Source: a virus
Virus record (IMG/VR): IMGVR_UViG_3300003937_000235
Span: 1 to 24,007 of that record
Strand: one strand, 5' to 3'
Length of the DNA stretch: 24,007 nt
The notes under the pieces were generated by a model. That model did not search any database. It worked only from the letters and a program-made list of their open reading frames with translations, and had not been told where the DNA came from. This document shows positions 930 through 18,624 of the stretch, piece after piece; within the stretch, counting starts at the first letter, position 1; every line of letters starts with the position of its first letter. Both the position numbers and the translations under genes were made by a program.

Positions 930-933
930 GTAG

Positions 934-941
934 TATAAATA
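934..941 (+). promoter_or_regulatory. Late promoter (TATAAATA) upstream of gene 18
   Basis: An exact TATAAATA lies in the short gap between genes 17 and 18. This is the T4 late promoter box read by gp55-RNA polymerase, and a gp55 gene is present at 16391. Transcription should start about 6 bp after the box, giving a leader of about 50 nt that includes the gene 18 ribosome site. Confidence 0.85.
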
Positions 942-999
942 AGTATATTGAGAAAATCCTTATTATGAATAATCTTATCAATAACATGAAGGAGTTTAG

Positions 1000-3209: not shown

Positions 3210-3227
3210 ATCATCGATAAACATAAG

Positions 3228-3251
3228 GAGTGCCGAAAGGCACTCTTTCTT
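3228..3251 (+). terminator. Intrinsic terminator after gene 19
   Basis: A perfect 7-bp stem GAGTGCC/GGCACTC (3228-3234 and 3239-3245) closes a GAAA tetraloop and is followed by TTTCTT. It lies between gene 19 and the next late promoter. Confidence 0.85.
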
Positions 3252-3257
3252 AAGTGT

Positions 3258-3265
3258 TATAAATA
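3258..3265 (+). promoter_or_regulatory. Late promoter (TATAAATA) upstream of gene 20
   Basis: An exact TATAAATA lies 7 bp downstream of the gene 19 terminator and about 34 bp before the gene 20 ATG. The terminator-promoter arrangement restarts transcription for the head genes. Confidence 0.85.
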
Positions 3266-3299
3266 TATTTAAGAAAGAGTGAATTAGGAACAGGAATGT

Positions 3300-4811
3300 A
3301 TGGCAGAAAATAACGGCGTAACACTATTTGGCTTTGAGTTTAAACGAAAGGCAATAGAAGATAAAAAGAAACCTTTATCATTCGCAACCGAGAATGAGGA
3401 TGGCGCGTACGAAATTTCCCCAACTGGTGGACACTTTGGTCAATATATGGATCTTAGTGGAGATAAGTTCGAGTCAGATAAACTATTAATAATGAAGTAC
3501 CGTTCGATATCAGCATATCCAGAAGTGGATATGGCGATTGAAGATATATGTAATGAAGCAATCACAGATGAGAACGGCATTATTGTTAAATTAAATCTTG
3601 ATAACTTAGATCAAGCAGACAATGTTAAAGATCTAATCATGGAAGAATTCGATAGAATTCTAAACTTAACTAACTTCTCTATGTCATCATACGATACATT
3701 TAGACGTTGGTATGTAGATGGACGTTTATTTTATCATGTTATTATTAATGAATCTAAGCCTGATGCTGGTATATTAGAACTAAGACAAATAGATCCAACA
3801 AAGATTCGTAAGATTAAAGAAGTCGAAAAGGTTAAAGACCCTAAGACCGGTGCTGAACTTGAAAAAGAAGGCCAAGAATATTACCTCTATCAAGATGATG
3901 TATTAATTAATAACGCAGAAGGCTTACGTATTAATCCTGATGCTATTATTCAAGTTAACTCAGGTCTATTAAACGAAGAACGCAATAAGGTTATTGGCTA
4001 CTTAAATAAAGCCCTTAAACCTTTAAACCAATTAAGTATGATGGAAGACTCACTTGTCATCTATCGTATATCAAGAGCACCTGAACGTCGTATATTTTAT
4101 ATAGACGTAGGTAATCTACCTAAGGGTAAGGCTGAAGAATACCTTAATAACACGATGAATAAGTATCGTAATAAGGTTGTATATGATCCTTCTACCGGTA
4201 ATCTAAAAGATGAGAAGATCCATCGTAATGTCATGGAAGACTTTTGGTTGCCACGTAGAGAAGGCGGCCGTGGTACAGAAATCGATACTCTTCCAGGTGG
4301 TTCAAACCTTGGTGAGATTGAAGATATACAATACTTCCAAAACAAATTATATAGGGCTTTAAATATTCCTATGTCACGATTAACAGAAGCAGATGCATTT
4401 TCTGTTGGTCGTTCCTCAGAAATCACTCGTGATGAACTTAAATTTCAAAAGTTTATAGATCGTTGCCGTGGTAAATTCTCAACATTATTCTATGAAGCGC
4501 TTAAGAGACAATTGATCCTTAAAAAGATTATAGTGCCAAGCGACTGGGTAAACATCCGTGAAGACATTGTTGTTGAGTATTCTAGAGATAATTACTATGC
4601 TGAACTTAAAGATACTGAAATCCTTAAGGAACGTATAGAAACTCTTCAAATGATGGACGAATATATTGGTACGTTCTGGTCTAAAGACTGGGTCCGCCGC
4701 AATATTCTGAAATTGGATGATGAGATGATTAAACAAATAGCGAAGGATAACAAGAAAGATCCTATCGAACCAGGTGATATTAATCCAGATTTATCAAATG
4801 CACCTATATAA
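3300..4811 (+). CDS. 20: Portal vertex protein gp20
   Basis: This is the dodecameric portal at the head-tail vertex through which DNA is packaged and to which gp17 docks. The product is 503 aa against 524 in T4. Recognisable blocks are YRSISAYPEVDMAIEDICNEAI (about 60-82), the RRWYVDGRLFYH segment (about 139-150), IYRISRAPERRIFYIDVGNLP (about 254-274), and DFWLPRREGGRGTEIDTLPGG (about 315-335), followed by LYRALNIPMSRL. Portal and crown regions follow the family order with no internal break. Upstream spacing to the late box suits a normal leader, although no strong Shine-Dalgarno sequence is visible apart from AGGAA. Confidence 0.96.
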   Translation: MAENNGVTLFGFEFKRKAIEDKKKPLSFATENEDGAYEISPTGGHFGQYMDLSGDKFESDKLLIMKYRSISAYPEVDMAIEDICNEAITDENGIIVKLNLDNLDQADNVKDLIMEEFDRILNLTNFSMSSYDTFRRWYVDGRLFYHVIINESKPDAGILELRQIDPTKIRKIKEVEKVKDPKTGAELEKEGQEYYLYQDDVLINNAEGLRINPDAIIQVNSGLLNEERNKVIGYLNKALKPLNQLSMMEDSLVIYRISRAPERRIFYIDVGNLPKGKAEEYLNNTMNKYRNKVVYDPSTGNLKDEKIHRNVMEDFWLPRREGGRGTEIDTLPGGSNLGEIEDIQYFQNKLYRALNIPMSRLTEADAFSVGRSSEITRDELKFQKFIDRCRGKFSTLFYEALKRQLILKKIIVPSDWVNIREDIVVEYSRDNYYAELKDTEILKERIETLQMMDEYIGTFWSKDWVRRNILKLDDEMIKQIAKDNKKDPIEPGDINPDLSNAPI

Positions 4812-4851
4812 ACAATAAGTATACATAAAGTTTACTGGAAATAAACATTTT

Positions 4852-4859
4852 TATAAATA
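4852..4859 (+). promoter_or_regulatory. Late promoter (TATAAATA) upstream of gene 67
   Basis: An exact TATAAATA lies in the 63-bp gap between gene 20 and gene 67, 15 bp before the ATG. The predicted start near 4865 leaves a leader of about 10 nt. Confidence 0.8.
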
Positions 4860-4874
4860 CTATACAGAGATATT

Positions 4875-5096
4875 ATGAGCACAAGAACACTAATTGACAA
4901 TATAAAAACGGGCGATGCGCAGAAGAGCAACAATACTTTTAATAGTATTATGCAAGATAAAATATTAAGCGCATTGAATAATCATAAACAAGAAGTTGCT
5001 TCTAAAATGTATGGAGCGACGAACGATGCTCCAGCAGTAGAAGAACCTGCGGTGGAGACACCAGAGGGAGAAGTTGCAACAGATGCTGACGTTTAA
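4875..5096 (+). CDS. 67: Prohead core protein, gp67-like
   Basis: A 73-aa protein in the T4 gene 67 position between portal and protease genes. The N-terminal half reads as a helix (LIDNIKTGDAQKSNNTFNSI, then MQDKILSALNNHKQEV). The C-terminal third is acidic and Pro/Val/Glu-rich (PAVEEPAVETPEGE). T4 gp67 (80 aa) has the same plan of a basic or neutral helix followed by an acidic tail, and is a minor scaffold component degraded by gp21. The assignment rests on size, composition and position more than on strong motifs. The 3' end overlaps the next start by 14 bases. Confidence 0.75.
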   Translation: MSTRTLIDNIKTGDAQKSNNTFNSIMQDKILSALNNHKQEVASKMYGATNDAPAVEEPAVETPEGEVATDADV

Positions 5097-5313
5097 GGAA
5101 TCATTCAATGAAGTAATTGAAGCTAAATTAAAGCTCCCGTCGGGTGAAAAGGTAGCCAAGGAATTAACCAAACTTGGAAAGAAAAAGAAAACATCTGCAG
5201 TCATAACAAACAAATTCAATCTATATATTGATGGAATTAAGCTTGACAAATTTAAAGATTTGAAAAGTGCTGAAGATGGATTAAAGGATTTCCTCAATTT
5301 AATGGGAGCTTAA
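5083..5313 (+). CDS. 68: Prohead core protein, gp68-like
   Basis: A small basic protein (76 aa from the ATG at 5083) in the T4 gene 68 position, beginning MLTFKESFNEVIEAKLKLP. It has a Lys-rich middle (KLGKKKKTS) and a FNLYIDGIKLDKF strand pair. The frame also has a TTG at 5074, but the ATG at 5083 is preferred because GGGAG lies 12 bp upstream of it and the resulting MLTFKE start is typical of this protein. It is shorter than T4 gp68 (141 aa). It abuts the protease ATG at 5314 directly. It probably serves as an internal core protein of the prohead. Confidence 0.7.
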   Translation: MLTFKESFNEVIEAKLKLPSGEKVAKELTKLGKKKKTSAVITNKFNLYIDGIKLDKFKDLKSAEDGLKDFLNLMGA

Positions 5314-5967
5314 ATGAAGTTAATTACGGAATATATTCAACACCAACTTGGTTTTTCTATTGAAGAGAATAAAAAAACCGGTAAGAAAAGTACTTTCTTA
5401 GAAGGTGTGTTTATGCAAGCAGAAAACAAGAACAAAAACGGTCGTATATATACGCGTGAAGTTCTTACACAGGCCGTTGACAAATTTGTCAATGAGCAAG
5501 TTATTACAGGTCGTGCAGTTGGTGAATTGAATCACCCTGATGGCCCTTCCATTAATTTGGATAAAGTTTCTCACAGAATTACCGAACTTAGTTGGGATGG
5601 TAATAATGTGATGGGAAAAGCACTTATTTTGGATACCCCTATGGGTCAGATTGTAAAAGGTTTGGTCGAGGGTGGCGTACAACTTGGAGTGTCTAGTCGT
5701 GGTATGGGAAGTCTTAGTATGAAAGACGGGGTTAATTATGTTAAGGATGATTTTCTACTTAACACTATCGATATCGTACAAGATCCTTCTGCCCCTAATG
5801 CTTATGTAAATGGCATTATGGAAGGAGTATCTTACGAGATGGATAGACCTGGTCATTATACTATGACAATTGAAAAAGGTGAGACAGAAGTGAAAGAGCC
5901 TATTAAAGAGAGTTACTCGGAAGAGCAACAGTCTGCAGGTTTTGAGCATTTCCTCTCTAAACTATAA
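5314..5967 (+). CDS. 21: Prohead maturation protease gp21
   Basis: A serine protease that digests the scaffold and trims capsid proteins during head maturation. The 217-aa product matches T4 gp21 (212 aa) in length. Family motifs are visible: GVFMQAENKNKNGRIYTREV (31-50), the catalytic His in ELNHPDGPSI (His74), and the catalytic Ser region GVQLGVSSRGMGSL (Ser127 or Ser128), followed by IVQDPSAPNAYVNGI. The C-terminus is Glu/Lys-rich, as in herpesvirus-type assemblin relatives. Preferred sites in the T4 system are after (L/I)-x-E, and candidates occur in gp22 and gp23 here. The gene follows gp68 without a gap. Confidence 0.95.
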   Translation: MKLITEYIQHQLGFSIEENKKTGKKSTFLEGVFMQAENKNKNGRIYTREVLTQAVDKFVNEQVITGRAVGELNHPDGPSINLDKVSHRITELSWDGNNVMGKALILDTPMGQIVKGLVEGGVQLGVSSRGMGSLSMKDGVNYVKDDFLLNTIDIVQDPSAPNAYVNGIMEGVSYEMDRPGHYTMTIEKGETEVKEPIKESYSEEQQSAGFEHFLSKL

Positions 5968-5985
5968 TCTCTATAGGAGAATACA

Positions 5986-7158
5986 ATGTCTGAAGTTATT
6001 AAAGACGAAAGTATTGATGAAACAGTAGATGAGGTTATTGTTGAGGATACGCAAGTAGAAGCTGAAGCGGATTTAGATATCCCCGAAGCACCTCTAACAG
6101 CAGCTCGTACAGTATCAGCAATACAAGCTTCTTTGACAGAAATGTCTAAAGAAGGCCTTGACGCAATCTTTGAAGCAGCGGAAAAAGCTAAAGCTAAAGC
6201 AGCTAAAGTGGAAGACGATGAAGAAGAAGAGGGCGATGAAGAAGAAGGCGACGAAGATGAAGGTGAAGTAGAAAATACTAAAGCATCTAAGAAAGAAGGC
6301 AAAGCTAAGAAAGAAAGTAAAAAAGCTAAGACTGAAGTCGTAGATGATGACGAGAAGGACACTGAAGGTAAAGCACCGGCTAAGAAAAAGAAAGTCAAGT
6401 CGGATGATGGTACTGAAGGTGATACCGTTGAGTCAAAAGGTAAAGGTAAATTCAAAGAAGACGTGGAAGCATTAGTTAAGGACGAGGACACATTGTCTGA
6501 AGGCTTTAAAGATAAAGCGGCTACTATTTTTGAAGCAGCACTTACATCAAAAGTCAACGCTGAAACAGCAAAATTAGAAGAGCGTTATGCATCTGATTTG
6601 GCTGGTGAAGTTGAAGCTATTAAAGAAGATTTAGTTGATAAAGTAGACGGGTACTTAACGTATGTCGTTGAAAACTGGATGACAGATAACGAAGTTGCAA
6701 TTGAGCATTCTTTGAAGTCTGAAATCACTGAATCATTTATTGAATCACTTGGTACATTATTTGCCGAGCACCACATCAATGTTCCTACGGACGCTGGAGA
6801 TATCTTAGATTCTCTGTCTGAAGAAGCTAAAGATGCTAAAGCTCAGTTGAATGATGCTACTGCTCGTGCTATGGAACTTTCTGAGAAAGTTAAAACTTTT
6901 GAAAGAAAAGAAATAGTTAGTGAAGCATGTAAAGGTTTAGCTGCAACTGAAACTGCAAAATTATCTGAATTAGTTGAAGGTATTGAAGCCGACTCTAATG
7001 AAGACTTTGCTAAAAAGGTAGCAACAATTAAGGAATCTTACCTTAACAAAGATGCCGCGGTAGATGCAAAAGATGTAGATGCAATTACTGAGGATACACA
7101 AGACCAAGATATTTCTGATCAAATGAAGTCATATCTTAGCGCACTTTCGCGTAAATAA
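5986..7158 (+). CDS. 22: Prohead scaffold protein gp22
   Basis: This is the main internal scaffold around which gp23 assembles. It is recognised by position between 21 and 23, by high helical and Glu/Lys content, and by the family-like C-terminal region (SEKVKTFERKEIVSEACKGL, about 300-320, then a region ending DQMKSYLSALSRK). At 390 aa it is much longer than T4 gp22 (269 aa). The extra length is mostly a low-complexity polyampholyte from about residue 63 to 145, with runs of Asp/Glu alternating with Lys/Ala. Several LxE and IxE triplets (LSE, ITE, IKE) are potential gp21 cleavage sites. The ribosome site is AGGAG about 8 bp before the ATG. Confidence 0.9.
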   Translation: MSEVIKDESIDETVDEVIVEDTQVEAEADLDIPEAPLTAARTVSAIQASLTEMSKEGLDAIFEAAEKAKAKAAKVEDDEEEEGDEEEGDEDEGEVENTKASKKEGKAKKESKKAKTEVVDDDEKDTEGKAPAKKKKVKSDDGTEGDTVESKGKGKFKEDVEALVKDEDTLSEGFKDKAATIFEAALTSKVNAETAKLEERYASDLAGEVEAIKEDLVDKVDGYLTYVVENWMTDNEVAIEHSLKSEITESFIESLGTLFAEHHINVPTDAGDILDSLSEEAKDAKAQLNDATARAMELSEKVKTFERKEIVSEACKGLAATETAKLSELVEGIEADSNEDFAKKVATIKESYLNKDAAVDAKDVDAITEDTQDQDISDQMKSYLSALSRK

Positions 7159-7181
7159 TCCATATTAAGGAGAATATTAAA

Positions 7182-8492
7182 ATGGAAATTAATCAACAAA
7201 TACTACAGGAAAAATGGGCCCCTGTACTTGATTCTGAAGAAGCTGGCAGTATAACTGATCAGCACAAACGCAGAGTAACTGCGGTTGTTCTTGAGAACCA
7301 AGAAAAAGCTTTCGCTGAAGAGCGTGCACACATTGGTGCTTTGCATGAAACTGCTGCAAACGCTATGGGCGCATCTAGCTCAACTGCTGGCGCGGGTAAC
7401 ATTGATACTTGGGATCCAGTACTTATCTCATTAGTGAGACGTGCTACTCCTAACCTCCTTGCATTTGATCTTGTTGGCGTACAGCCAATGACTGGACCAA
7501 CTGGTCTGATCTTTGCAATGAAATCTCGTTACACTAGCCAAACTGGTGACGAAGCGTTATTCGATGAAGCGGACACTGAATTTTCTGGTGCTCCTTCTGG
7601 TGACTTATCTACGCACTCAAGCGATCCGTTCGCTGCGGAAGATACAGCTGGTCCTGACTCAGATACTGTACACGAGTATCAGCCAGGTTCTGGTAACACT
7701 ACGGCAACTGCTGAAGCACAAGGTAACTCTGGTCCTGCTATTCCTCAAATGGCGTTCTCAATCGATAAGACTACTGTGACTGCAAAGTCTCGTGCTCTTA
7801 AAGCTGAGTACACTACTGAATTAGCGCAAGACCTTAAGGCTGTTCATGGTCTTTCTGCTGAAACTGAGCTGGCAAACATTTTGTCAACTGAGATTCTTGC
7901 TGAAATGAATCGTGAAATCATCCGTCTAGTAAACGTTAACTCTGTAACATCCACTCGTGGTAATGCTGCAGGTAACTTTAACTTTGCTGGTAACGTCGAT
8001 ACCGACGGCAGATGGTTTGCTGAGAAAGCTAAAAGCTTAGTACAAGCTATGGAAATCGAAGCTAATACAATTGCTGTTTCTACTCGTCGTGGAAAAGGTA
8101 ACTGGGCTATCGTTTCTCATGGTGTTGCTGCTGCATTAAATGCTGCAGGCGCTATGGATACTGGCATGGGTACTAGCGGTCCACAATCATTGACATCTGA
8201 TGTTTCAGGTTCATTGTTTGCTGGTACTGTTTATGGTTCAATGAAGATCTATATTGATCCTTATGCAAGCGTAGACTACTTTACTATTGGTTATAAAGGT
8301 ACTAACCCTTATGACGCTGGTATGTTCTATTGCCCATACGTTCCATTAAGCATGATGAAGACAATTGGTGAGAATGACTTCCAACCAAGAATCGGATTCA
8401 AAACTCGTTACGGCGTAGCTGACAATCCATTTGTTACTGCAGGTAATGGTAACAACGTATACTACAGAAAACGTAAGGTCTTAGGCCTGTAA
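7182..8492 (+). CDS. 23: Major capsid protein gp23
   Basis: This HK97-fold subunit forms the hexons of the head. The product is 436 aa against 521 in T4. Diagnostic segments are VRRATPNLLAFDLVGVQPMTGPTG (about 86-109), AEYTTELAQDLKAVHGL, ELANILSTEILAEMNREI, and FKTRYGVADNPF near the end. A likely gp21 site is the LHE triplet ending at Glu56 (ALHE/TAAN), just before the conserved domain; this matches the place where T4 gp23 loses its N-terminus. An AAGGAG lies 13 bp upstream. Codon use favours GCT, GGT, CGT and AAC, unlike the AGA/TTA-rich accessory genes downstream, consistent with very high expression. A strong terminator follows. Confidence 0.97.
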   Translation: MEINQQILQEKWAPVLDSEEAGSITDQHKRRVTAVVLENQEKAFAEERAHIGALHETAANAMGASSSTAGAGNIDTWDPVLISLVRRATPNLLAFDLVGVQPMTGPTGLIFAMKSRYTSQTGDEALFDEADTEFSGAPSGDLSTHSSDPFAAEDTAGPDSDTVHEYQPGSGNTTATAEAQGNSGPAIPQMAFSIDKTTVTAKSRALKAEYTTELAQDLKAVHGLSAETELANILSTEILAEMNREIIRLVNVNSVTSTRGNAAGNFNFAGNVDTDGRWFAEKAKSLVQAMEIEANTIAVSTRRGKGNWAIVSHGVAAALNAAGAMDTGMGTSGPQSLTSDVSGSLFAGTVYGSMKIYIDPYASVDYFTIGYKGTNPYDAGMFYCPYVPLSMMKTIGENDFQPRIGFKTRYGVADNPFVTAGNGNNVYYRKRKVLGL

Positions 8493-8514: not shown

Positions 8515-8541
8515 ATCCCCCTTTATTGGGGGATTTTTTTT
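8515..8541 (+). terminator. Strong intrinsic terminator after gene 23
   Basis: A 7-bp stem ATCCCCC/GGGGGAT (8515-8521 and 8528-8534) encloses TTTATT and is followed by an uninterrupted T run to 8541. It closes the virion module. Confidence 0.93.
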
Positions 8542-8544: not shown

Positions 8545-8552
8545 TATAAATA
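8545..8552 (+). promoter_or_regulatory. Late promoter (TATAAATA) abutting a start codon
   Basis: An exact TATAAATA lies 4 bp after the gene 23 terminator and 4 bp before the ATG at 8557. With the T4 late geometry (start about 6 bp past the box) the transcript would begin at the start codon itself, with no room for a ribosome binding site. Confidence 0.8.
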
Positions 8553-8556: not shown

Positions 8557-9141
8557 ATGAATTATTTGGTATTATATCAAGGTGGAATGGCAGGCACATG
8601 GTTAGCTTGGTTAATTAATCAACATGATAATTTTCCTAAATACCCTAAACATGTAAAAGAATCAGGCCTTGATATTGGTTGTTGGGGAGCAGATTGGGAA
8701 ACCGAAAAAGAAACATTTAAAGAATCTAGACAACACGTAATAAGTAATACAAAGAAGGATTGTATAAAGATAATTCCTCTTCATGAATTAAGAGATCCTA
8801 TTGCAATGCCACATGATATTGATAGACCATTAAGAGATTTAGTATTTAGTGAAGTAAATCCAGTTAAAGTAATATATCCTATTGTAACAACAATGAGAGA
8901 AGAATTTATTGCTAGATGGAATAAGCTTGAACTTGGTAGTCCCGTTATAGAACAAGGCTGGACTGAATGGGATTGGTTTGTTGACCAGGAAGAACCATAC
9001 GGTGATATAGTTAAAATCGATATGGGTAAATTATTGTCAGGTGATATATGGCAATACTATAAATTATGTAATGAAATAGAAGAGGAACCGTTGCCAAATA
9101 TACAAGAACTTATTAATGATTACAAGAAATTTTTCGTATAA
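8557..9141 (+). CDS. Sulfotransferase-like P-loop protein
   Basis: A 194-aa protein, probably cytosolic. The N-terminus is a strand followed by a Gly-rich loop, YLVLYQGGMAGTWLAWLIN (residues 3-21). This resembles the phosphosulfate-binding loop of sulfotransferase-fold proteins found in marine phages. The C-terminus (YYKLCNEIEEEPLPNIQELI, then NDYKKFF) resembles the terminal helix of the same group. The middle has IYPIVTTMREEFIARW and a Trp-rich stretch (WTEWDWFVDQEEPYGD). No substrate can be inferred, and an ordinary P-loop kinase is possible. The Met at 8557 is needed to keep the loop strand, yet it sits directly after the late promoter, so its mRNA should be leaderless. Its stop codon lies within the next late promoter. 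Function is tentative. Confidence 0.5.
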   Translation: MNYLVLYQGGMAGTWLAWLINQHDNFPKYPKHVKESGLDIGCWGADWETEKETFKESRQHVISNTKKDCIKIIPLHELRDPIAMPHDIDRPLRDLVFSEVNPVKVIYPIVTTMREEFIARWNKLELGSPVIEQGWTEWDWFVDQEEPYGDIVKIDMGKLLSGDIWQYYKLCNEIEEEPLPNIQELINDYKKFFV

Positions 9142-9144
9142 ATA
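9137..9144 (+). promoter_or_regulatory. Late promoter (TATAAATA) containing the upstream stop codon
   Basis: An exact TATAAATA in which bases 9139-9141 are the TAA stop of the sulfotransferase-like gene. The next ATG is at 9151, 6 bp past the box, predicting a leaderless or nearly leaderless late mRNA for the tube-like protein. Confidence 0.8.
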
Positions 9145-9150: not shown

Positions 9151-9618
9151 ATGCCAAACTTTTTAAATCCATCATCGTTCGTAATGACTCTAGATAGCCA
9201 GACATATTCTGGCGCTCAGTTTACAGTACAGACTATGATGCTCCCAGACGTATCTGCGGAAGGTGCACCTGTAACATTTAAACAAGTAAATGTTGCAATG
9301 GCTGCAGATAAAGTAATGTTTGCCCCATTAGAATTAAGTTATCTAATCGATGAGGATCTTTTAAACTATAAAGAGATCTTTGATTGGATGAAGATGGGGA
9401 TAGAGACAAACCATCAACAAGCAATTATTGGCAACAATCATGTACGAGATCTAACCCTAACTGTTATGAACTCGGCTAATAATGTAACAAAACAAATCAA
9501 TTTTATCGATGCTTACCCGACTAGTCTTTCATCGTTACCATTTGATATCACGACAACCGATGTAGAATATCTTACTGCAGTTGCCACATTCAATTATTCA
9601 TACTACGAATTCATCTAA
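9151..9618 (+). CDS. Tail-tube-like virion structural protein
   Basis: A 155-aa protein with the strand pattern of phage tube-domain proteins: FTVQTMMLPDVSAEG (about 24-38), MFAPLELSYLIDEDLLNYKEIFDWM (about 56-80), LTLTVMNSANNVTKQINFIDAYPTSLSSLPFD (about 101-132), and a final VATFNYSYYEF. The core FxPLxLxYLIDEDLxNYxEIxxWM resembles structural proteins of marine T4-like phages related to gp19. Its place after gene 23 is where related phages often carry a tail-completion gene (gp3), so it could be a tube terminator or initiator rather than the main tube subunit. A late promoter immediately before it fits a virion role. The family is reasonably clear; the exact role is inferred. Confidence 0.65.
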   Translation: MPNFLNPSSFVMTLDSQTYSGAQFTVQTMMLPDVSAEGAPVTFKQVNVAMAADKVMFAPLELSYLIDEDLLNYKEIFDWMKMGIETNHQQAIIGNNHVRDLTLTVMNSANNVTKQINFIDAYPTSLSSLPFDITTTDVEYLTAVATFNYSYYEFI

Positions 9619-9633: not shown

Positions 9634-10095
9634 ATGAGATCAAATATCGAACAGTGGATTGAGGAGTTTGTCTCAGTTCATAATGAATCGCTAAACCAAA
9701 CACCATGCCCGTATGCAAAAGCTGCATTAGTTAAATATATAGAAACAGATGACCTTGGTAAATCATTAGCTGATGTAATAAATAATTGGTCTGATTCACA
9801 TCAAGTTGTATGTTTATATACAGCTACAGAAAATTATACACCTTATAATTTAAATCATTTAATAATGGAATTTAATGCTGTAGCAATGCCACATGATATT
9901 GTTGCATTAGAAGATCATCCAAATGACCCAGAAATTATTAATGGTGTCAAAATGAATTTTGGCAAATGTATATTAGTATTAGTACAAAGACTTAGCGTTA
10001 TCAATAGGAAAAGCTTAGCATTAAAAGACCAAGGTTATTATGATAATTGGTCAGAAGAGAATTTAGATGACGTAGTTAATTGGAGATTTAAATGA
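9634..10095 (+). CDS. Conserved hypothetical protein with CPYAKAA motif
   Basis: A 153-aa protein with no function I recognise. The N-terminus is helical (IEQWIEEFVSVHNESL) and followed by TPCPYAKAALVKYIET (about 23-38), a motif that looks conserved (Pro-Cys-Pro before a helix). Next comes a strand-like region VVCLYTATENYTPYNLNHLI and a C-terminal stretch rich in Asn, Asp and Trp (YYDNWSEENLDDVVNWRFK). It contains AMPHDI, which also occurs in the protein at 8557 with identical codons. No ribosome site is visible before the ATG. The stop overlaps the next start (ATGA), so it is probably translated with the acyltransferase-like gene and may serve the same cassette. Confidence 0.6.
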   Translation: MRSNIEQWIEEFVSVHNESLNQTPCPYAKAALVKYIETDDLGKSLADVINNWSDSHQVVCLYTATENYTPYNLNHLIMEFNAVAMPHDIVALEDHPNDPEIINGVKMNFGKCILVLVQRLSVINRKSLALKDQGYYDNWSEENLDDVVNWRFK

Positions 10096-10622
10096 GTTAC
10101 TCATATGCGAGGATTAATTTAGAGAAAACTAATTATAGCAAAATAGATAATACAGATATTATAGATTATTATCCACGTATGCCACAGGATTTAGATAACA
10201 TATATTATAAGTATTGTAATCATCATGCATTTAATAGTGTAATGCCATTATTTCCAATCGAGTATGAAGAAAATACTATCCATGGATATTATGATACAAA
10301 TCACGATGGGCTTTATGATGATTATCATAATCATGGTGACTCAAAAATAATGGTAGGATTTAGTATGATATGTGAATTTGATAATGAAAATGCTGAAGCT
10401 TATCAGTTTGCTTGGGATTATAGAAGACCTAAATTACATTTGGGCCTTGCTAGCTTAAGACATGAGTGTGCATATTATAAAGAAAAAGGATTTAAGTATC
10501 TGTATATCGGTGGAGCAGATGAATATAAACAAAAGATAGATGGATTTGAGATAATGAGTCCAGCAGCTTGGATAGATGGAAGGTGGACAATAGATGGATT
10601 CGAACCAGTACAAAATAAATAA
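10092..10622 (+). CDS. Ate1/GNAT-like acyl- or aminoacyl-transferase
   Basis: A 176-aa protein whose second half follows the pattern of the acyl-CoA N-acyltransferase fold in arginyl-tRNA-protein transferase (Ate1) relatives. It has a strand with KIMVGFSMICEFD (about 85-97), then WDYRRPKLHLGLASLRHECAYYKEKGFKYLYIGGADEY (about 109-146), matching the family order of aromatic strand, LG-x-L turn, long helix and YLYIGG strand, and then KQKIDGFEI. The N-terminal Cys cluster of true Ate1 is absent apart from a CNHH segment near residue 42. A plausible role is transferring an acyl or aminoacyl group to an amine, but substrate and donor are unknown. It overlaps both neighbours, linking it to the amidinotransferase gene. 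Confidence 0.5.
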   Translation: MSYSYARINLEKTNYSKIDNTDIIDYYPRMPQDLDNIYYKYCNHHAFNSVMPLFPIEYEENTIHGYYDTNHDGLYDDYHNHGDSKIMVGFSMICEFDNENAEAYQFAWDYRRPKLHLGLASLRHECAYYKEKGFKYLYIGGADEYKQKIDGFEIMSPAAWIDGRWTIDGFEPVQNK

Positions 10623-11736
10623 AGCAAATGCATATAACGGTTGGGACCCTTTAAAACAGGTAATCCTCGGTAATGTATTTGAACCAGAGTTTTTTGAAAC
10701 TGTTGGTGACCCTAAACTTCGGGATTTACTCCAGCAAATCTTGTATGAAACCCATGAAGACTTAACAAATATCCGCACGACGCTTGAGGATTTGGGTGTT
10801 GAAGTAATTCAACCACCAAGGAATTCAATGGATGGAGTTCGTGAAGAGGATATGTTTGATACTATTCAGAGTGTAATGGATGCCTTCGGAAAGAATGAAG
10901 TTATTGATTTTATTTGGAAACCATGTCTTATGCCAAGAGATAATTGGATTACTTTAGGTGATAAGATTCTTTTTACTGGTTCAGACTTTACTAATCCATA
11001 TAAAATTAATCCTGATATTATAGATCATTATCCAGTGAAAAATTTAATAGAGAGGGATGGTTCCGGCTTTAGCATAAACGATCGCCCTCACACTTACAGT
11101 AATACTTTTTGGGCTCCTCAAATTATACGTGTAGGCAATAAACTTATTATTGATGAAGAGGATAAAACTAATTTAGGCGAATGGGTTTTAGATAAGTATC
11201 CACAATTTAAATCTACTTCTGCAATAACAGCGGGAGGACATACTGATGGAGCAATGTGTTTACCAAAACCAGGATTGGTTATTCATACACCATGGATAGA
11301 TGGAAACATTTTTAAAGAGACTCTTCCAGGTTGGGATATTCTTGGAATTCAAAATCCAAACCAAATGCAAGCTGATAATGCTCATGAATGGAATGGACTT
11401 AATTCATGGAGGTTAGAGAAAGATATTACAGAAGGTAGATGGTGGACACCTCAAGCTAAATCAAATCCAGAGCTTGTCAAATTTGTAGATAGCTATCTAA
11501 GTGAATGGACTGGTTTTGCAGAAGAAAGTATATTTGAAGTTAATATGCTTAGTATATCTGAAGAGGTTATCCTATCATTAAACTATCAAAAAGAAGTTCA
11601 CGATAAATTAAAGAAACATAATATAGAACCGATATACTGTAGATTTAGACATAGAAATTTTTGGGATGGTGGCTTACATTGTTTAACTTTAGATACATAT
11701 CGCGAAGGCGGTATGCAAGATTATTTTGCTAAGTAG
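10594..11736 (+). CDS. Amidinotransferase-family protein (AGAT-like)
   Basis: A 380-aa protein of the guanidino-group-modifying (pentein) superfamily, closest in plan to arginine:glycine and inosamine-phosphate amidinotransferases. It has WDPLKQVILGNVFEP at the N-terminus (17-31), CLMPRDNWITLGDKI (111-125), GGHTDGAMCLPKPGLVI (214-230) giving the catalytic His216 and the HxD motif, FEVNMLSISEEVIL (314-327), and the nucleophile loop FWDGGLHCLTLD with Cys363. The family's catalytic Asp lies in an FDAAD-type motif, where this protein reads FWAPQ (172-176), so that Asp appears replaced. Likely chemistry is amidino transfer from arginine to an amine, or a related reaction. The ATG overlaps the preceding gene by 29 bp, with GGAAGG upstream. 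The family is clear; activity and substrate are uncertain. Confidence 0.8.
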   Translation: MDSNQYKINKANAYNGWDPLKQVILGNVFEPEFFETVGDPKLRDLLQQILYETHEDLTNIRTTLEDLGVEVIQPPRNSMDGVREEDMFDTIQSVMDAFGKNEVIDFIWKPCLMPRDNWITLGDKILFTGSDFTNPYKINPDIIDHYPVKNLIERDGSGFSINDRPHTYSNTFWAPQIIRVGNKLIIDEEDKTNLGEWVLDKYPQFKSTSAITAGGHTDGAMCLPKPGLVIHTPWIDGNIFKETLPGWDILGIQNPNQMQADNAHEWNGLNSWRLEKDITEGRWWTPQAKSNPELVKFVDSYLSEWTGFAEESIFEVNMLSISEEVILSLNYQKEVHDKLKKHNIEPIYCRFRHRNFWDGGLHCLTLDTYREGGMQDYFAK

Positions 11737-12331
11737 ATCTGATATAATCAACCATGCAATCCAAGCTATTAAGGCTAAAGACTATTTAGAAATAGGCTGT
11801 GCATATAACGAAAACTTTGATAAGATCAAAGTAAAAAACAAAGTCGGAATCGATCCGAACTCAGGTGGAACATTACGTATGACTAGCGATGAATTCTTTG
11901 CGGTTAACCTAATGAAATATGACGTCATCTTTATTGATGGGTTGCATGAACATAAACAAGTCTGGCAAGACTTCTGTAATTCAGTTAAAATTCTAAGACC
12001 TAGAGGGATTATAATCTTGCATGATATGTTACCACCCGGAGAGCAACAAGCTATTTGGCCGTTTGAAGAAGATCAAAAAAATGATGCACCGCGTTGTGGT
12101 ACAAGCTGGAGAGCTTCATTCGACATACTAAAATTACAGAAAGAATATTTTATTATAGACAGAGAAACAGGTATAGCTATATGGAGAAACAATGATGTAC
12201 CAAATGATATTGATTTTGATTCAGAGACTATTACCTGGAATGAATTTCAAGAATGCCGATCGCGCATGGGATTCGATGTGATAGATTCAACTACAGGTTT
12301 ACAACGTATGTACAAACTGCGCAAACTATGA
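11726..12331 (+). CDS. SAM-dependent methyltransferase, class I (TTG start)
   Basis: A 201-aa protein with a Rossmann methyltransferase core: motif I YLEIGCAYNENF (20-31), an acidic end of strand 2 in VGIDPN (Asp43), and VIFIDGLHEHKQVWQDF (67-83), followed by LRPRGIIILHDMLPPG. This is the Methyltransf_24/FkbM-like arrangement common in O-methyltransferases that act on sugars or small metabolites. No in-frame ATG precedes motif I, so TTG at 11726 is the best start. It overlaps the amidinotransferase stop by 11 bp, suggesting coupled translation. The last codons form part of the promoter of the following gene. The substrate is unknown, and the context suggests methylation of a product of the cassette. 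Confidence 0.75.
   Translation: MLSRSDIINHAIQAIKAKDYLEIGCAYNENFDKIKVKNKVGIDPNSGGTLRMTSDEFFAVNLMKYDVIFIDGLHEHKQVWQDFCNSVKILRPRGIIILHDMLPPGEQQAIWPFEEDQKNDAPRCGTSWRASFDILKLQKEYFIIDRETGIAIWRNNDVPNDIDFDSETITWNEFQECRSRMGFDVIDSTTGLQRMYKLRKL
11740..11748 (+). promoter_or_regulatory. Possible extended -10 promoter at the methyltransferase start
   Basis: TGATATAAT matches the extended -10 used elsewhere in the window, but no TGTACA-like -35 is seen 16-17 bp upstream. The ATG at 11754 that follows is out of frame and closes after 11 codons. It could drive an internal transcript or be coincidental. Confidence 0.25.
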
Positions 12332-12337
12332 TATAAT
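12309..12337 (+). promoter_or_regulatory. TGTACA / extended -10 promoter for the radical SAM gene
   Basis: TGTACA (12309-12314), a 17-bp spacer, then TATAAT (12332-12337) within TATGATATAAT. The methyltransferase stop codon TGA (12329-12331) is inside the extended -10. The radical SAM ATG at 12344 is 6 bp past the -10, so the transcript should start at or next to the start codon. Confidence 0.75.
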
Positions 12338-12343
12338 ATAACC

Positions 12344-13648
12344 ATGGATAGTAATTGGAATAAGCACACAGGTCTTAAAGATCCTACGTGCGCATTAAAA
12401 TTTGTATGGTCATCTATAAAACTAAGCGAAGGTACATCCGCTAGTTGCCATAGAACCACATATGATAAGATACCTGAGGGAGACTTTGGTAAATTTCATC
12501 ATACCCCTACTAAAATGGCTACGCGTAAACTTATGCTGGAAGGTAAATGGCCAGGTAAAGGTTGTGAGTATTGTAAAAAGATAGAAGATGCTGGTGGTAT
12601 TTCAGATAGAATGGAAGCCAATAGCATGAAATCTGAACTCTTTAGTACAACTAACTGCACAATATTAGAAATGTATTTTAGTAATGTATGTAATCAAGCA
12701 TGTATATATTGCTCTGCTGAATATAGTTCTACATGGGAAGCCGAAAATAAAAAGTGGGGTTTAACACAAAATATTAATGACTATGCATTAGACTTCTTTC
12801 AAGACAAAGAGAATTTTAAAAGAATAAAAAATGAGTTCTGGGAATGGATGGAAGATAATCATAAGCCATTAGTTAAATATAATATATTAGGTGGCGAACC
12901 ATTCTTTCAACCAGAGTTATTAGAGAATTTAGACTTCTTTGAATCTCACCCTTGCCCTAATTTAGAGTTAACTATATTTACTAATCTAAAATGTCCTGAA
13001 CAAAGATTTCGTGATACTATGGATCATATAGAATTCTTACGTGCAATAGGTAACCTAGGTCATATAAGAATTATTTGTTCTATTGATTGTTGGGGAGAAG
13101 CACATGAGTATACACGTTGGGGATCAAAGCTAGAAGAGTTCGATAGGAATCTTGGTATACTTGCATTAGATTATAAAGATATAGAAACAGAAATCCACAT
13201 GACTATGGCCGCTACAACAATAAGGGCTATGCCAGAATTAGTAACAAGATTAAACTATTGGAATAATCTAAGAAATCCATTAAGAGAAAAGGCACCTGAA
13301 GTAAAGTCAGGTGTGAAAGAGAATTCAAAGATAAAACCTATATACATCTCTGGTAATTTTGTTGTATGGCCAAATCATATGGCACCTGATATATTCCCAG
13401 CAGGATTCTTTGCAGATGATTTTAAAAGGTTATATGAAGAGTTAGACAAAGGTGTATGGAAATATCGTATCTATGAACTAATGAGAGGATATGAAAAGTC
13501 AATAGATAATACGCCTGTCAATTATGAGATGATTAAATTACTTAAGACTGAATTGACAGATATAGACAGAAGGAGAGGATGCGATTGGAAGAAAACATTC
13601 CCATGGTTAAACGATTTTAATACGGATATAAATATTAATACATTATGA
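12344..13648 (+). CDS. Radical SAM protein (twitch-domain type)
   Basis: A 434-aa radical SAM enzyme. The 4Fe-4S motif CNQACIYC gives Cys116, Cys120 and Cys123 (CX3CX2C), followed by the SAM-binding GGEP motif in NILGGEPFFQP and strand motifs FTNLKC and IRIICSIDCWGEAHEYTRWG. An N-terminal region (DPTCALKFVWSSIKLSEG, then a Cys-His pair and GCEYC) resembles the accessory twitch-like segment seen in phage and metagenomic radical SAM proteins. A late CDWKK adds another Cys. The reaction is unknown; options include peptide or sugar modification. It has its own promoter and lies beside a methyltransferase and an amidinotransferase. Its start is supported by the need for the N-terminal motif, although no ribosome site precedes it. 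Confidence 0.85.
   Translation: MDSNWNKHTGLKDPTCALKFVWSSIKLSEGTSASCHRTTYDKIPEGDFGKFHHTPTKMATRKLMLEGKWPGKGCEYCKKIEDAGGISDRMEANSMKSELFSTTNCTILEMYFSNVCNQACIYCSAEYSSTWEAENKKWGLTQNINDYALDFFQDKENFKRIKNEFWEWMEDNHKPLVKYNILGGEPFFQPELLENLDFFESHPCPNLELTIFTNLKCPEQRFRDTMDHIEFLRAIGNLGHIRIICSIDCWGEAHEYTRWGSKLEEFDRNLGILALDYKDIETEIHMTMAATTIRAMPELVTRLNYWNNLRNPLREKAPEVKSGVKENSKIKPIYISGNFVVWPNHMAPDIFPAGFFADDFKRLYEELDKGVWKYRIYELMRGYEKSIDNTPVNYEMIKLLKTELTDIDRRRGCDWKKTFPWLNDFNTDININTL
13627..13634 (+). promoter_or_regulatory. Possible late promoter before uvsY
   Basis: An exact TATAAATA lies in the last codons of the radical SAM gene, 10 bp before the uvsY ATG. It encodes part of DININT, so it could be a chance match in A+T-rich coding sequence. 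If used, the leader would be about 5 nt. Confidence 0.4.
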
Positions 13649-16030: not shown

Positions 16031-16339
16031 ATGCAAATAACTAGTAATGCCGCAGACAAAGTAGCTGGAATGAAATCAGCAACCGAAAACCTAAGAGTTT
16101 ATATATCTGGTGGTGGATGTTCAGGCTTTAGTTACGGTTTTAAATTAGATGAGACATCAATTGATGGTGATTATAGTATTGAGAAAAATGGTGTACAAGT
16201 TCTGATAGACCCTATGAGCTATCAATATCTAGAAGGAATAACAATCGATTATGTCCAAGACTTACAAGGGGCACGGTTTCAAATAAGTAATCCAAACGCT
16301 AAAACAACATGTGGATGTGGCTCATCTTTTAGTATTTAA
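16031..16339 (+). CDS. A-type Fe-S cluster carrier (IscA/ErpA/HesB-like)
   Basis: A 102-aa protein of the HesB/IscA family, which accepts Fe-S clusters from a scaffold and passes them to target enzymes. The three ligand cysteines are present: Cys30 in [12 protein letters not shown], and Cys94 and Cys96 in TTCGCGSSF. Intervening family features are [37 protein letters not shown]. Length is standard and nothing is missing. In phages it may support host or phage Fe-S enzymes; the radical SAM protein encoded 2.4 kb upstream would be one client, though this is inference. Its TAA stop starts the promoter of gene 55. Confidence 0.92.
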
Positions 16340-16390: not shown

Positions 16391-16972
16391 ATGACTGAAA
16401 AAATTAAACCAAGAGACAAACCCCATTACGTAAATAACCGACAGTTTTCATATGCTGTCGTTGACTATGTGACCGAGGCAAATGAAGCCAAGATAAATGG
16501 AGACAAAAATCCAGTAGTACCAGATTATATTGCTATATGCTTTATGAAGATTTGTGAAGGTCTATCCCATAAACCAAACTTTGTACGATACACATATCGA
16601 GATGAGATGGTTATGGATGGAGTTGAGAACTGTCTTAAAGCAATATACAATTATAGAATAGATGCAAGCACGAGAACCGGTAAGCCTAATGCATTTTCTT
16701 ATTTCACACAGATAGCTTACTTCGCCTTTATACGTAGAATCGTTAAAGAGAAAAAGCAATCAGATATCAAATTTAAATTCATGGAGCAAGCCAATATAGA
16801 AGACTTTGTATCTAGCATTGATGTAAATAGTCCTATTGACCAGTCATTCCTTGATACACTTCGTGAAAAAATATCTAAGATTAAAGAAGTCGATACTCAA
16901 ATTAAAGACTTTGAAAAATCAGAGAAGGTTAAAAAGAAAAAAGGATTAGAAAAGGTAATGAACGATGGATAG
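16391..16972 (+). CDS. 55: Late-transcription sigma factor gp55
   Basis: A 193-aa divergent sigma70-family factor, matching T4 gp55 (185 aa) in size. It directs RNA polymerase to TATAAATA late promoters together with gp33 and the gp45 clamp. The family start KPHYVNNRQFSYAVVDYV (10-27) is clear, followed by the region-2-like core MDGVENCLKAIYNYRIDA (about 75-92) and AFSYFTQIAYFAFIRRIVKEKK (about 102-123), which is the core-binding and -10 recognition helix. The C-terminus is Lys-rich. GGAG lies 5 bp before the ATG. Its presence accounts for the late boxes throughout the window. Confidence 0.94.
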   Translation: MTEKIKPRDKPHYVNNRQFSYAVVDYVTEANEAKINGDKNPVVPDYIAICFMKICEGLSHKPNFVRYTYRDEMVMDGVENCLKAIYNYRIDASTRTGKPNAFSYFTQIAYFAFIRRIVKEKKQSDIKFKFMEQANIEDFVSSIDVNSPIDQSFLDTLREKISKIKEVDTQIKDFEKSEKVKKKKGLEKVMNDG

Positions 16973-17771
16973 AGTGGTGAGAAGATTTTTAATAGTAGGA
17001 TTTGGTATAGTAGGTAAAGCAGTACATGCTGGTTTATTACAAAATGAAACATACGATGTGGCAGTATTAGACCCACCTCTTGATATGAATATATTAGATG
17101 ATGGAATTCGTAACTATGCTGACTATAACTTTTATGATGGTATTATATTAACTTTGCCGACACCGCAAGGTCCTGTAGGTGAATGTGATGATATGGCTGT
17201 TGAACAATATGTACAAGAAATACGTAAGGTTGCACCAAGAACACCTATACTAATTAAGTCAACGATATCAATTGAGCTTATAGATTTATTAGGTGATGAT
17301 CCATATCTAACAACTAATCCAGAGTTTTTAACAGAAGCTGATAACCTAAGTGAATTCTTACATCAAAGATTTACTATCTTCGGTGGACGTCAATGTCGAT
17401 TTTGGTATGATGTATTTCTTCATGCTGGTATTGTTATGGACAATGTTAAGTTTACTGATAAACGAACAGCGGCATTTGCAAAATATGCAATTAATTCATA
17501 CCTTGCCACAAAGGTAATATTCTTTAATGAGTTAAGAGACTTCTTTGGTCCCAAAGGATTTGATGAATTAACTGAATGCATTTCATTAGACGAACGTATT
17601 GGTTCAAGTCATATGATGGTTCCTGGACCAGATAGAGAATATGGATTTGGTGGTATGTGTTTTCCAAAAGATACAAGTGCATTTCTAAGATCTAGCCATG
17701 GTAAATTAACCTTATTAGAAAAAGCAAGACAAATTAATGATGATATAAAGGCGGATCGTAGATGGATATAA
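16965..17771 (+). CDS. Short UDP-sugar 6-dehydrogenase-like protein
   Basis: A 268-aa nucleotide-sugar dehydrogenase relative. It has an N-terminal NAD-binding Rossmann motif (FLIVGFGIVGKAV, 8-20), TLPTPQG in place of the usual VxTPT, a STISIELIDLL segment, TTNPEFLTEAD, and the central helix FAKYAINSYLATKVIFFNEL carrying the conserved Lys. The catalytic-Cys loop is YGFGGMCFPKDTSAF, with Cys232. Full enzymes are about 390-450 aa. This one stops soon after the Cys loop and lacks the C-terminal UDP-binding domain, so it may act on another activated sugar or be a reduced form. It overlaps gene 55 by 8 bp and the epimerase gene by 10 bp. Confidence 0.8.
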   Translation: MDRVVRRFLIVGFGIVGKAVHAGLLQNETYDVAVLDPPLDMNILDDGIRNYADYNFYDGIILTLPTPQGPVGECDDMAVEQYVQEIRKVAPRTPILIKSTISIELIDLLGDDPYLTTNPEFLTEADNLSEFLHQRFTIFGGRQCRFWYDVFLHAGIVMDNVKFTDKRTAAFAKYAINSYLATKVIFFNELRDFFGPKGFDELTECISLDERIGSSHMMVPGPDREYGFGGMCFPKDTSAFLRSSHGKLTLLEKARQINDDIKADRRWI

Positions 17772-18481
17772 TAATGACAGGATCATCTGGCTATATAGGA
17801 AGTCACCTTGCACCATACTTAGAAAAGGCAGGACATAGAATATATGGTTATACTGGTGAGATAACAGAATTCGATTATATAAATGGCAGTTTTGATATGG
17901 TTATTCATTTAGCTGCATTGACTGGAGTTCGTAGATCTTTAGATTGGCCTGATGAATATTTTGATACAAACGTACATGGTACGAGAAAGGTATTTGAATT
18001 TTGTTATAGACGTAATATAAAATGTATGTATGCGTCAAGTTCAAATGCTTATGAATGGTGGACTAACCCGTACGCTACAACTAAAAAGATTAACGAATTA
18101 GATGGACATGACTTTGTAGGCTTTAGACCTCATACAGTTTATCCAGGAAGAGAGGATATGATGTATCATAGAATGACAGAAGATCCTGAATCAGTTGAAT
18201 ATATAAATGGATATCATGAGAGAGATTGGACTCATATAGAAGATTTATGTTCTGCTATATGTACATTGATCGAAAACTATGATATAATGAAGGGTAAGGT
18301 GCAAGATATTGGAACAGGTGAGTCAATCAATTTAAAAGAGGTAGCTGCAAAATTAATGCCTTATAGAACACCTGAGATAAGAGCAGAGAATCCAAAAACA
18401 GAACGTATAAAAACATGTGCGGATATAACAAAATTAAAGGAACTAGGATGGGAAGCTAAGCATAGAGTAGTATCTAAATGA
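17762..18481 (+). CDS. NAD-dependent epimerase/dehydratase (SDR), short
   Basis: An extended-SDR sugar epimerase or dehydratase of 239 aa. It has a TGSSGYIGSHL cofactor loop (6-16), MVIHLAALTGV (46-56), YASSSNAYE, and the catalytic YATTK (Tyr and Lys of YxxxK, about residues 103-107). Further on are VGFRPHTVYPGR, DWTHIEDLCSAI and a DIGTGESINLKEVA segment. Usual members are about 300-340 aa; here loops and part of the substrate domain are trimmed. It pairs with the dehydrogenase upstream, suggesting remodelling of a nucleotide sugar for glycan synthesis. A strong promoter-like sequence is embedded at 18260-18288. The substrate is unknown. Confidence 0.85.
   Translation: MDIIMTGSSGYIGSHLAPYLEKAGHRIYGYTGEITEFDYINGSFDMVIHLAALTGVRRSLDWPDEYFDTNVHGTRKVFEFCYRRNIKCMYASSSNAYEWWTNPYATTKKINELDGHDFVGFRPHTVYPGREDMMYHRMTEDPESVEYINGYHERDWTHIEDLCSAICTLIENYDIMKGKVQDIGTGESINLKEVAAKLMPYRTPEIRAENPKTERIKTCADITKLKELGWEAKHRVVSK
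18260..18288 (+). promoter_or_regulatory. TGTACA / extended -10 promoter inside the SDR gene
   Basis: TGTACA (18260-18265), a 17-bp spacer and TATAAT (18283-18288) within AACTATGATATAAT, the same layout as the promoter at 12309. It would serve the zinc-ribbon, 2OG-oxygenase and gene 47 run about 190 bp downstream. It is within coding sequence, so chance is not excluded, but both elements and the spacing match. Confidence 0.6.
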
Positions 18482-18624
18482 GAGTAGACAAAGAAACGAT
18501 ATGGCATTTTGTATGTCAATATTGTTCTGCCTATTGGAGCATTGCTACTATGGAACACGATTGGAAACCAAAGAAATTATATTGTCCACACTGCGGAAAA
18601 GAGAATGAGGCTGAAGAATTATGA
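18478..18624 (+). CDS. Small zinc-ribbon protein (48 aa)
   Basis: A 48-aa reading frame between the epimerase and oxygenase genes, starting at the ATG of ATGA that overlaps the epimerase stop. It has two CxxC pairs, FVCQYCSAYW (Cys13, Cys16) and LYCPHCGKE (Cys36, Cys39), separated by about 20 residues with conserved-looking WSIA. This is a classic zinc-ribbon layout, and similar tiny proteins occur in marine T4-like phages. It could bind nucleic acid or a protein partner; no function is established from sequence. The last 20 bases overlap the oxygenase start at 18605. Confidence 0.8.
   Translation: MRVDKETIWHFVCQYCSAYWSIATMEHDWKPKKLYCPHCGKENEAEEL

What the first reader, a model, noticed from the sequence alone, without database searches (positions are those of the whole stretch)
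10092..13648. Uncharacterised enzyme cassette: Ate1-like transferase, amidinotransferase homologue, methyltransferase and radical SAM protein
Four group-modifying enzymes sit together between the capsid and recombination modules. The first three overlap (10092/10095, 10594/10622, 11726/11736), indicating coupled translation, and the unknown protein at 9634 joins by an ATGA overlap. Amidino transfer, acyl or aminoacyl transfer, methylation and radical chemistry are the tool set of small-molecule or peptide tailoring. No peptide synthetase or obvious precursor peptide is seen. Candidate targets are a surface glycan, a host metabolite, or a phage protein. AGA/TTA-rich codon use unlike the capsid genes is compatible with acquisition or lower expression. 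I know of no described phage pathway with this combination.
Basis: partly seen in the sequence, partly recalled or inferred. Interest (0 to 1): 0.75.

Follow-up and report, generated by a model that had tools for sequence, protein, structure and literature searches.

The report
Phage three-gene guanidine-chemistry module
A T4-like phage fragment carries a compact three-gene unit (a probable haem enzyme, a small transferase and an amidinotransferase) that stays together in many unrelated large phages and is nearly absent from bacteria, which points to an undescribed chemical pathway run by viruses from the host's arginine.

Summary
In 43 of 50 non-redundant viral loci carrying the Ate1-like gene, both others lie within 3 kb. 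The three keep together in several gene orders and strands, and their divergences correlate (Mantel r 0.47-0.75). A fourth gene, DUF6614, joins in 26 of 50 loci but not in the window. The methyltransferase is a local extra (5 of 50). The radical SAM protein is a common but optional companion; here it sits behind its own early-type promoter with uvsY, whereas the module lies behind a T4 late promoter.

o9634 belongs with DUF6875, recently reported as haem oxygenases, and its invariant Cys25 lines up with the haem-ligating Cys of the arginine hydroxylase AglA. Best explanation: a self-contained pathway that moves an amidino group from host arginine to an amine, adds an aminoacyl or acyl group, and oxidises the product. 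Product and substrates are not shown. Phage clusters pairing amidinotransferase with radical SAM genes were described in 2010; I found no description of this module.

The parts
9634..10095 (+). o9634: DUF6875/DUF1415-like protein, probable small haem oxygenase; core gene 1
   Evidence: 33 of 56 family members match DUF6875 PF21780 (best 1.5e-5), 8 match DUF1415; hhalign to DUF6875 prob 95%, E 2e-8; invariant C25 and H95; model pLDDT 93
10092..10622 (+). Single-domain Ate1-like GNAT transferase; core gene 2
   Evidence: 46 of 47 family members match ATE_C PF04377 (best 3.4e-8; window protein itself 0.02); Foldseek: tandem GNAT, A-PGS/L-PGS/MprF, ATE1
10594..11736 (+). AGAT-type amidinotransferase; core gene 3
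   Evidence: hmmsearch of 68-member family against PDB: StrB1 1e-40, HsvA 7e-39, AGAT, SxtG; C363, H216, D218 in 68/68, D116 in 67/68; AGAT Asp254 position is Trp173 here
11726..12331 (+). Methyltransf_24 methyltransferase; clade-specific extra gene, probably co-transcribed with the core
   Evidence: PF13578 2.4e-9; only 5 of 50 non-redundant loci
12344..13648 (+). Twitch-domain radical SAM protein; optional companion in a separate transcription unit
   Evidence: NF033640 198 bits vs cut-off 170; own promoter-like site at 12309-12337
9137..9144 (+). T4-type late promoter motif TATAAATA upstream of the tail-tube-like gene and the module
   Evidence: 9 matches in window, all + strand, 8 just upstream of late or structural ORFs; conserved at this place in relatives
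8545..8552 (+). Second late promoter motif TATAAATA, upstream of o8557
8516..8532 (+). Terminator-like hairpin after gp23, separating capsid and module transcripts
   Evidence: equivalent hairpins in relatives
12309..12337 (+). Sigma-70-like promoter TGTACA-17-TATAAT with TG, before radical SAM/uvsY
   Evidence: in L007 and L024 an equivalent site lies between radical SAM and uvsY
9151..9618 (+). Second gp19-like tail-tube protein, upstream in the same late unit
   Evidence: PHROG 45 tail tube 5e-28

Best explanation
A self-contained, late-expressed phage biosynthetic module of three core enzymes. Proposed working: (1) the amidinotransferase takes the amidino group of host arginine onto Cys363 and passes it to an amine acceptor, leaving ornithine; (2) the single-domain Ate1-like GNAT attaches an aminoacyl group (from aminoacyl-tRNA, perhaps Arg-tRNA) or another acyl group to the same molecule or its precursor; (3) o9634, a small haem oxygenase of the DUF6875 superfamily and a distant analogue of the arginine hydroxylase AglA, oxidises the product, for example at a guanidine N-H. 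The result would be a small guanidino compound made by the infected cell late in infection. Shown: gene identities at superfamily level, the linkage and co-divergence of the three genes, conserved catalytic Cys/His/Asp, near absence from sampled bacteria, and late-promoter context in the window clade. Inferred: haem binding, order of steps, donor and acceptor identities, and the small-molecule nature of the product.
For: Linkage: 43 of 50 non-redundant ATE loci have both partners within 3 kb and 49 of 50 have o9634; several orders and strands with adjacency kept; Mantel r 0.59, 0.47, 0.75, above all 999 permutations. No other neighbour family is shared across distant phages except DUF6614 (26 loci) and radical SAM (14), so the module looks self-contained. 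Amidinotransferase: StrB1, AGAT, HsvA and SxtG at 1e-40 to 2e-36, catalytic Cys/His/Asp conserved. o9634: DUF6875 relation; DUF6875 proteins reported as haem proteins oxidising L-Trp (PMC13307353); Cys25 in register with the PC motif holding AglA Cys44, the haem ligand; same order of helices and strands as described for AglA. Precedent for the logic: the argolaphos cluster combines a YqcI/YcgG hydroxylase with GNAT proteins assigned as aminoacyl-tRNA ligases (PMC8976061).
Against: No substrate or product evidence. Known aminoacyl-tRNA GNAT transferases have two GNAT domains (PMC12945691), this protein one. The catalytic Asp of AGAT (Asp254) is replaced in 36 of 39 family members near an Ate1-like gene, so the amidinotransferase chemistry may be altered. 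The YqcI/YcgG relation is weak by profile (prob 12%), and no PDB structure matched the o9634 model at E<=0.001, nor is AglA among the 50 matches listed. DUF6875 enzymes are reported to act on Trp, not Arg. The module occasionally lacks the amidinotransferase nearby (L068, L088, L092).
Confidence: 0.4

Rival explanations
1. The module modifies a late phage (virion) or host protein rather than a free metabolite: the Ate1-like GNAT adds an amino acid to a protein, and the amidinotransferase and haem enzyme then act on that residue.
For: Ate1 itself modifies proteins; the module sits in a late unit directly after a second tail-tube-like protein; cyanophage o9634 homologues lie close to baseplate genes.
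Against: The tail-tube neighbour is confined to the window clade; contexts elsewhere are unrelated. AGAT-type amidinotransferases with solved structures act on small molecules (own knowledge).
Confidence: 0.2
2. Surface-glycan tailoring: the amidinotransferase puts an amidino group on an amino sugar, as StrB1 does in streptomycin synthesis, with the others adding acyl groups.
For: StrB1 is the best PDB match; S-SCSM2R carries a homologue beside kdsA/kdsB; CP220 beside sugar-transferase-like genes; the window has a UDP-sugar dehydrogenase and epimerase 3 kb downstream.
Against: Among module neighbours glycan genes are sporadic; the core triad has no conserved sugar-pathway partner.
Confidence: 0.13
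3. Auxiliary metabolism of the creatine type: amidinotransferase makes guanidinoacetate and the adjacent methyltransferase methylates it.
For: Phage genes are annotated as glycine amidinotransferase, and GAMT was reported as virus-enriched in the Arctic Ocean (PMC11360552).
Against: The methyltransferase is in only 5 of 50 loci and is a Methyltransf_24 protein without a GAMT match in Pfam or PDB; does not explain o9634 or the Ate1-like gene.
Confidence: 0.07
4. Hypermodification of phage DNA bases, with an amidino or aminoacyl group as the decoration.
For: GNAT, radical SAM and amino-transfer enzymes occur in known phage thymine hypermodification, and archaeosine-type amidination of phage DNA exists (own knowledge).
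Against: Thymidylate-synthase-family genes found in only 3 of 11 long module contigs, all over 329 kb (contigs may be incomplete); late expression in the window clade is late for DNA modification.
Confidence: 0.06
5. One reading: the Ate1-like, amidinotransferase, methyltransferase and radical SAM genes form one four-step cassette.
For: Adjacency in the window and close relatives; radical SAM within 7 kb of 33 of 89 non-redundant amidinotransferases.
Against: Methyltransferase and radical SAM absent from most module loci; separate promoter for radical SAM in the window; o9634 omitted.
Confidence: 0.05

Closest known systems
Radical SAM/amidinotransferase clusters of Campylobacter phages CP220 and CPt10 (PMC2853527, 2010)
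   Same: Phage-borne putative glycine amidinotransferase in a compact enzyme cluster, described as an interchangeable module; homologue found by tblastn, 23% identity.
   Different: CP220 annotation shows several radical SAM genes and sugar-transferase-like genes and names no Ate1-like, DUF6875 or DUF6614 gene in the region viewed; the present core has no obligatory radical SAM.
AGAT-type amidinotransferases (AGAT, StrB1, HsvA, SxtG)
   Same: Nearly full-length profile match; conserved Cys, His and guanidine-binding Asp residues.
   Different: Catalytic Asp254 position not conserved (Trp in the window, Asn or Cys elsewhere; D in 13 of 68); phage-specific RHRxFWDGGLHC motif.
DUF6875 haem proteins ('cytochrome P422', cited in PMC13307353) and YqcI/YcgG arginine hydroxylases (AglA, DcsA)
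   Same: Shared N-terminal Trp and Cys-Pro-(Phe/Tyr)-Ala motif with DUF6875; Cys in register with AglA haem ligand.
   Different: Shorter (about 153 aa), separate LEDHP...E motif with invariant His; weak profile score to YqcI/YcgG; haem binding unproven.
Ate1 arginyltransferase and FemX/aminoacyl-tRNA GNAT transferases
   Same: C-terminal GNAT motif with LG..SL..E..Y...G..YLYLG...YK; Foldseek hits to ATE1, A-PGS, MprF.
   Different: One GNAT domain only; no ATE N-terminal domain.
Argolaphos (alp) biosynthetic cluster (PMC8976061)
   Same: Combines a putative guanidine N-hydroxylase (AlpD) with GNAT proteins assigned as aminoacyl-tRNA ligases.
   Different: Phosphonate pathway with ATP-grasp and many more genes; no amidinotransferase in the listed table; bacterial.

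Membership tests
AGAT-type amidinotransferase | Profile similarity along most of the protein | tested here: met
   StrB1 1.2e-40, AGAT 1e-37, SxtG 2e-36, two matched stretches each
AGAT-type amidinotransferase | Nucleophilic Cys, His and guanidine-binding Asp residues | tested here: met
   C363, H216, D218 68/68; D116 67/68
AGAT-type amidinotransferase | Third catalytic residue Asp254 | tested here: not met
   Trp173 in window; Asp in 13/68; 3/39 near an Ate1-like gene vs 10/29 otherwise, Fisher p 0.011, not corrected for kinship
Ate1 arginyltransferase | ATE_C domain | tested here: inconclusive
   Family: 46/47 members match, best 3.4e-8; window protein below cut-off, E 0.02, 16 vs 25 bits
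Ate1 arginyltransferase | ATE_N domain / double GNAT architecture | tested here: not met
   176 aa, one GNAT-like domain, no ATE_N match
Ate1 arginyltransferase | Transfer of Arg from Arg-tRNA | not testable with these tools
   needs biochemistry
DUF6875 haem proteins | PF21780 match | tested here: inconclusive
   33/56 family members match, best 1.5e-5, but not the window member; hhalign prob 95%
DUF6875 haem proteins | Conserved CPF/Y motif Cys | tested here: met
   C25 56/56; aligned with Cys of CPF in DUF6875
DUF6875 haem proteins | Haem binding | not testable with these tools
   needs purified protein
YqcI/YcgG arginine hydroxylases | Sequence-profile homology | tested here: inconclusive
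   hhalign prob 12%, Cys in register; one family member matches PF08892 at 0.046
YqcI/YcgG arginine hydroxylases | Sandwich fold of AglA | tested here: inconclusive
   Order of secondary-structure elements agrees with the published description, but AglA is not among the 50 PDB matches listed
Twitch radical SAM (NF033640) | Score above curated cut-off | tested here: met
   198.1 vs 170 bits
CP220/CPt10-type cluster | Amidinotransferase embedded among several radical SAM genes | tested here: not met
   One radical SAM gene, in its own unit; 14/50 module loci have any

The most novel reading that the evidence does not exclude
A virus-specific biosynthetic pathway, dispersed by horizontal exchange among large tailed phages, in which the phage makes a hydroxylated guanidino compound from host arginine and charged tRNA with a minimal haem oxygenase, a single-domain aminoacyl-tRNA transferase and an amidinotransferase with a rewired active site: a phage-made bioactive metabolite with no bacterial counterpart.
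Probability: 0.2. Interest if true: 0.88.

Novelty: new variant of a known kind. Interest (0 to 1): 0.62.

Why it matters
Phage genomes are full of orphan enzymes read one by one as auxiliary metabolic genes ('glycine amidinotransferase' among them). Here three such orphans form one conserved unit that survives reshuffling across phages whose contigs reach 352 kb, and that sampled bacteria lack. That makes a viral metabolite or modification directly testable with three small genes. It would also extend the new DUF6875 haem-enzyme superfamily to viruses, including cultured cyanophages and phages of Puniceispirillum and roseobacters, and would offer unusually small candidates.

Tried and rejected
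Rejected: the four-gene cassette as a unit; codon usage as evidence of acquisition; creatine synthesis as sole function. Led nowhere: PDB fold search for o9634, no match at E<=0.001; bacterial DUF6614 neighbourhoods, no conserved context in the 12 loci fetched and no module genes; Pfam scan of 87 module neighbours, no recurrent pathway beyond radical SAM; tblastn of the window and one distant Ate1-like protein and of one DUF6614 against phage records, and of the Ate1-like protein against plasmids, no match; the genome search with the Ate1-like profile in 299 genomes of one phylum, no match but no positive control. Three genome-search runs failed on a handle error and one alignment and one paper look-up on input errors. 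Thymidylate-synthase search is weak evidence because contigs may be incomplete.
Full report
What is there. The window is a 24-kb fragment of a T4-like phage: terminase, sheath, portal, prohead protease, Gp23, UvsY and UvsW are confirmed by Pfam. It is a virus record of 24,007 bases.

What the conserved unit is. Relatives were collected from viral contigs with the amidinotransferase and Ate1-like proteins. The two profile scans returned only the best 80 loci each, so counts describe a sample that favours closer relatives. After collapsing at 90% identity, 43 of 50 Ate1-like loci have both o9634 and an amidinotransferase within 3 kb, and 49 of 50 have o9634. Of 42 complete triads, 29 have the window order and the rest show various other orders, strands or extra amidinotransferases. 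Pairwise divergence of the three proteins correlates (r 0.59, 0.47, 0.75; all above 999 permutations); shared phage ancestry contributes to this. A fourth gene, DUF6614, lies beside the triad in 26 of 50 loci and was not found in the 49.9-kb contig that carries the window's near-identical relative. Beyond that, neighbours differ from phage to phage. The methyltransferase is in 5 loci and radical SAM in 14.

Regulation. TATAAATA, the T4 late promoter core (own knowledge), occurs nine times, all on the + strand (4.3 expected on both strands; 5 of 100 shuffles reach nine), eight of them just before ORFs such as gp18, gp20, o8557 and the tail-tube-like gene. The motif before the tail-tube-like gene is kept in relatives, often after a Gp23 terminator. 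The radical SAM gene is instead preceded by TGTACA-17-TATAAT. In L007 and L024 the equivalent site lies between radical SAM and uvsY. The core and methyltransferase therefore most likely form a late unit, and radical SAM belongs to the uvsY unit in the window. These are motif inferences; no transcript data exist.

The amidinotransferase. A 68-member profile matches StrB1, HsvA, AGAT and SxtG at 1e-40 to 2e-36. The nucleophile C363, H216 and D218 are invariant and D116 is in 67 of 68. The position of AGAT Asp254 (residue roles from own knowledge of AGAT) is Trp in the window and Asp in only 13 of 68. It is Asp in 3 of 39 near an Ate1-like gene and 10 of 29 otherwise (Fisher p 0.011, not corrected for kinship).

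The Ate1-like protein. 46 of 47 members match ATE_C, best 3.4e-8, the window member only 0.02. The model (pLDDT 84) is a single GNAT domain with Foldseek matches to a tandem GNAT, A-PGS/L-PGS/MprF and ATE1. Known aminoacyl-tRNA GNATs have two domains (PMC12945691), so aminoacyl-tRNA use is an inference and membership in Ate1 is not claimed.

o9634. 33 of 56 members match DUF6875 and 8 match DUF1415; hhalign to DUF6875 gives probability 95%. DUF6875 proteins are reported to bind haem and oxidise L-tryptophan (PMC13307353, citing a 2025 preprint). YqcI/YcgG proteins hydroxylate guanidine N-H with a haem bound by Cys44 in AglA (PMC12866846). AglA Cys44 is the Cys of the YqcI/YcgG PC motif, and hhalign places o9634 Cys25 on that Cys, though at only 12% probability. 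The order of helices and strands in the o9634 model (pLDDT 93) agrees with the description of AglA, but no PDB fold match was significant. Cys25, Ala28, Leu92, His95, Glu100 and Tyr136 are invariant in 56 members. Either Cys25 or His95 could be the haem ligand. Homologues without annotated module partners nearby occur in cultured phages S-PM2, S-H9-2, Sf-CH11, HMO-2011 and CRP-810; for S-PM2 the neighbourhood was not viewed. Close structural matches among viral models are all unnamed or uncharacterised.

Mechanism. The simplest reading that uses all three proteins is guanidine chemistry from host arginine: amidino transfer, aminoacyl or acyl transfer, and haem-dependent oxidation. The argolaphos cluster pairs a YqcI/YcgG hydroxylase with GNAT proteins assigned as aminoacyl-tRNA ligases (PMC8976061), which shows that the combination is chemically sensible. 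Which molecule is made, and whether the target is a metabolite, protein or glycan, is open. The lack of conserved neighbours argues for general host substrates.

Relation to the literature. Campylobacter phages CP220 and CPt10 carry clusters with five radical SAM genes and a putative glycine amidinotransferase (PMC2853527). Virome surveys list glycine amidinotransferase or GAMT as auxiliary genes (PMC8226683, PMC11360552). In the open-access papers searched I found no description of the o9634/Ate1-like/amidinotransferase module; subscription papers and preprints were not searched.

Verdict.

Noticed in passing
L034/L041/L108 upstream of the module: In one group of phages (a related contig is 115 kb) the genes upstream of the module include DUF444 (YeaH-like) and SpoVR proteins, normally a bacterial stress operon with the kinase PrkA.
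   Followed up: partly
L017 (Marine virus AG-345-D19), 1-7954: An amidinotransferase without the Ate1-like gene sits beside proteins that look like a carbamoyltransferase, a sulfotransferase, two SGNH-type proteins, radical SAM and two methyltransferases; assignments by eye only.
   Followed up: no
window 9151-9618: A second gp19-like tail-tube protein soon after Gp23, behind its own late promoter motif.
   Followed up: partly
window 16031-16339: Phage-encoded Fe-S biogenesis protein (PF01521, 7e-20) kept in close relatives.
   Followed up: no
window 16965-19168: UDP-sugar dehydrogenase, NAD epimerase and 2OG-Fe(II) oxygenase in a row, a likely sugar-nucleotide set.
   Followed up: no
S-PM2, S-H9-2, Sf-CH11, HMO-2011, CRP-810: Cultured phages encode o9634 homologues labelled hypothetical, close to baseplate genes in cyanophages and next to a 2OG oxygenase in Sf-CH11 and CRP-810; good candidates for testing haem binding.
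   Followed up: partly
L067, L071, L066: Two or three amidinotransferase paralogues flank the same module, suggesting different acceptors.
   Followed up: no
window 12331, 20954, 22724: GATATAATATA-like sites recur before the radical SAM gene, gp46 and the tRNA-Tyr region, a candidate early or middle promoter of this phage group.
   Followed up: partly
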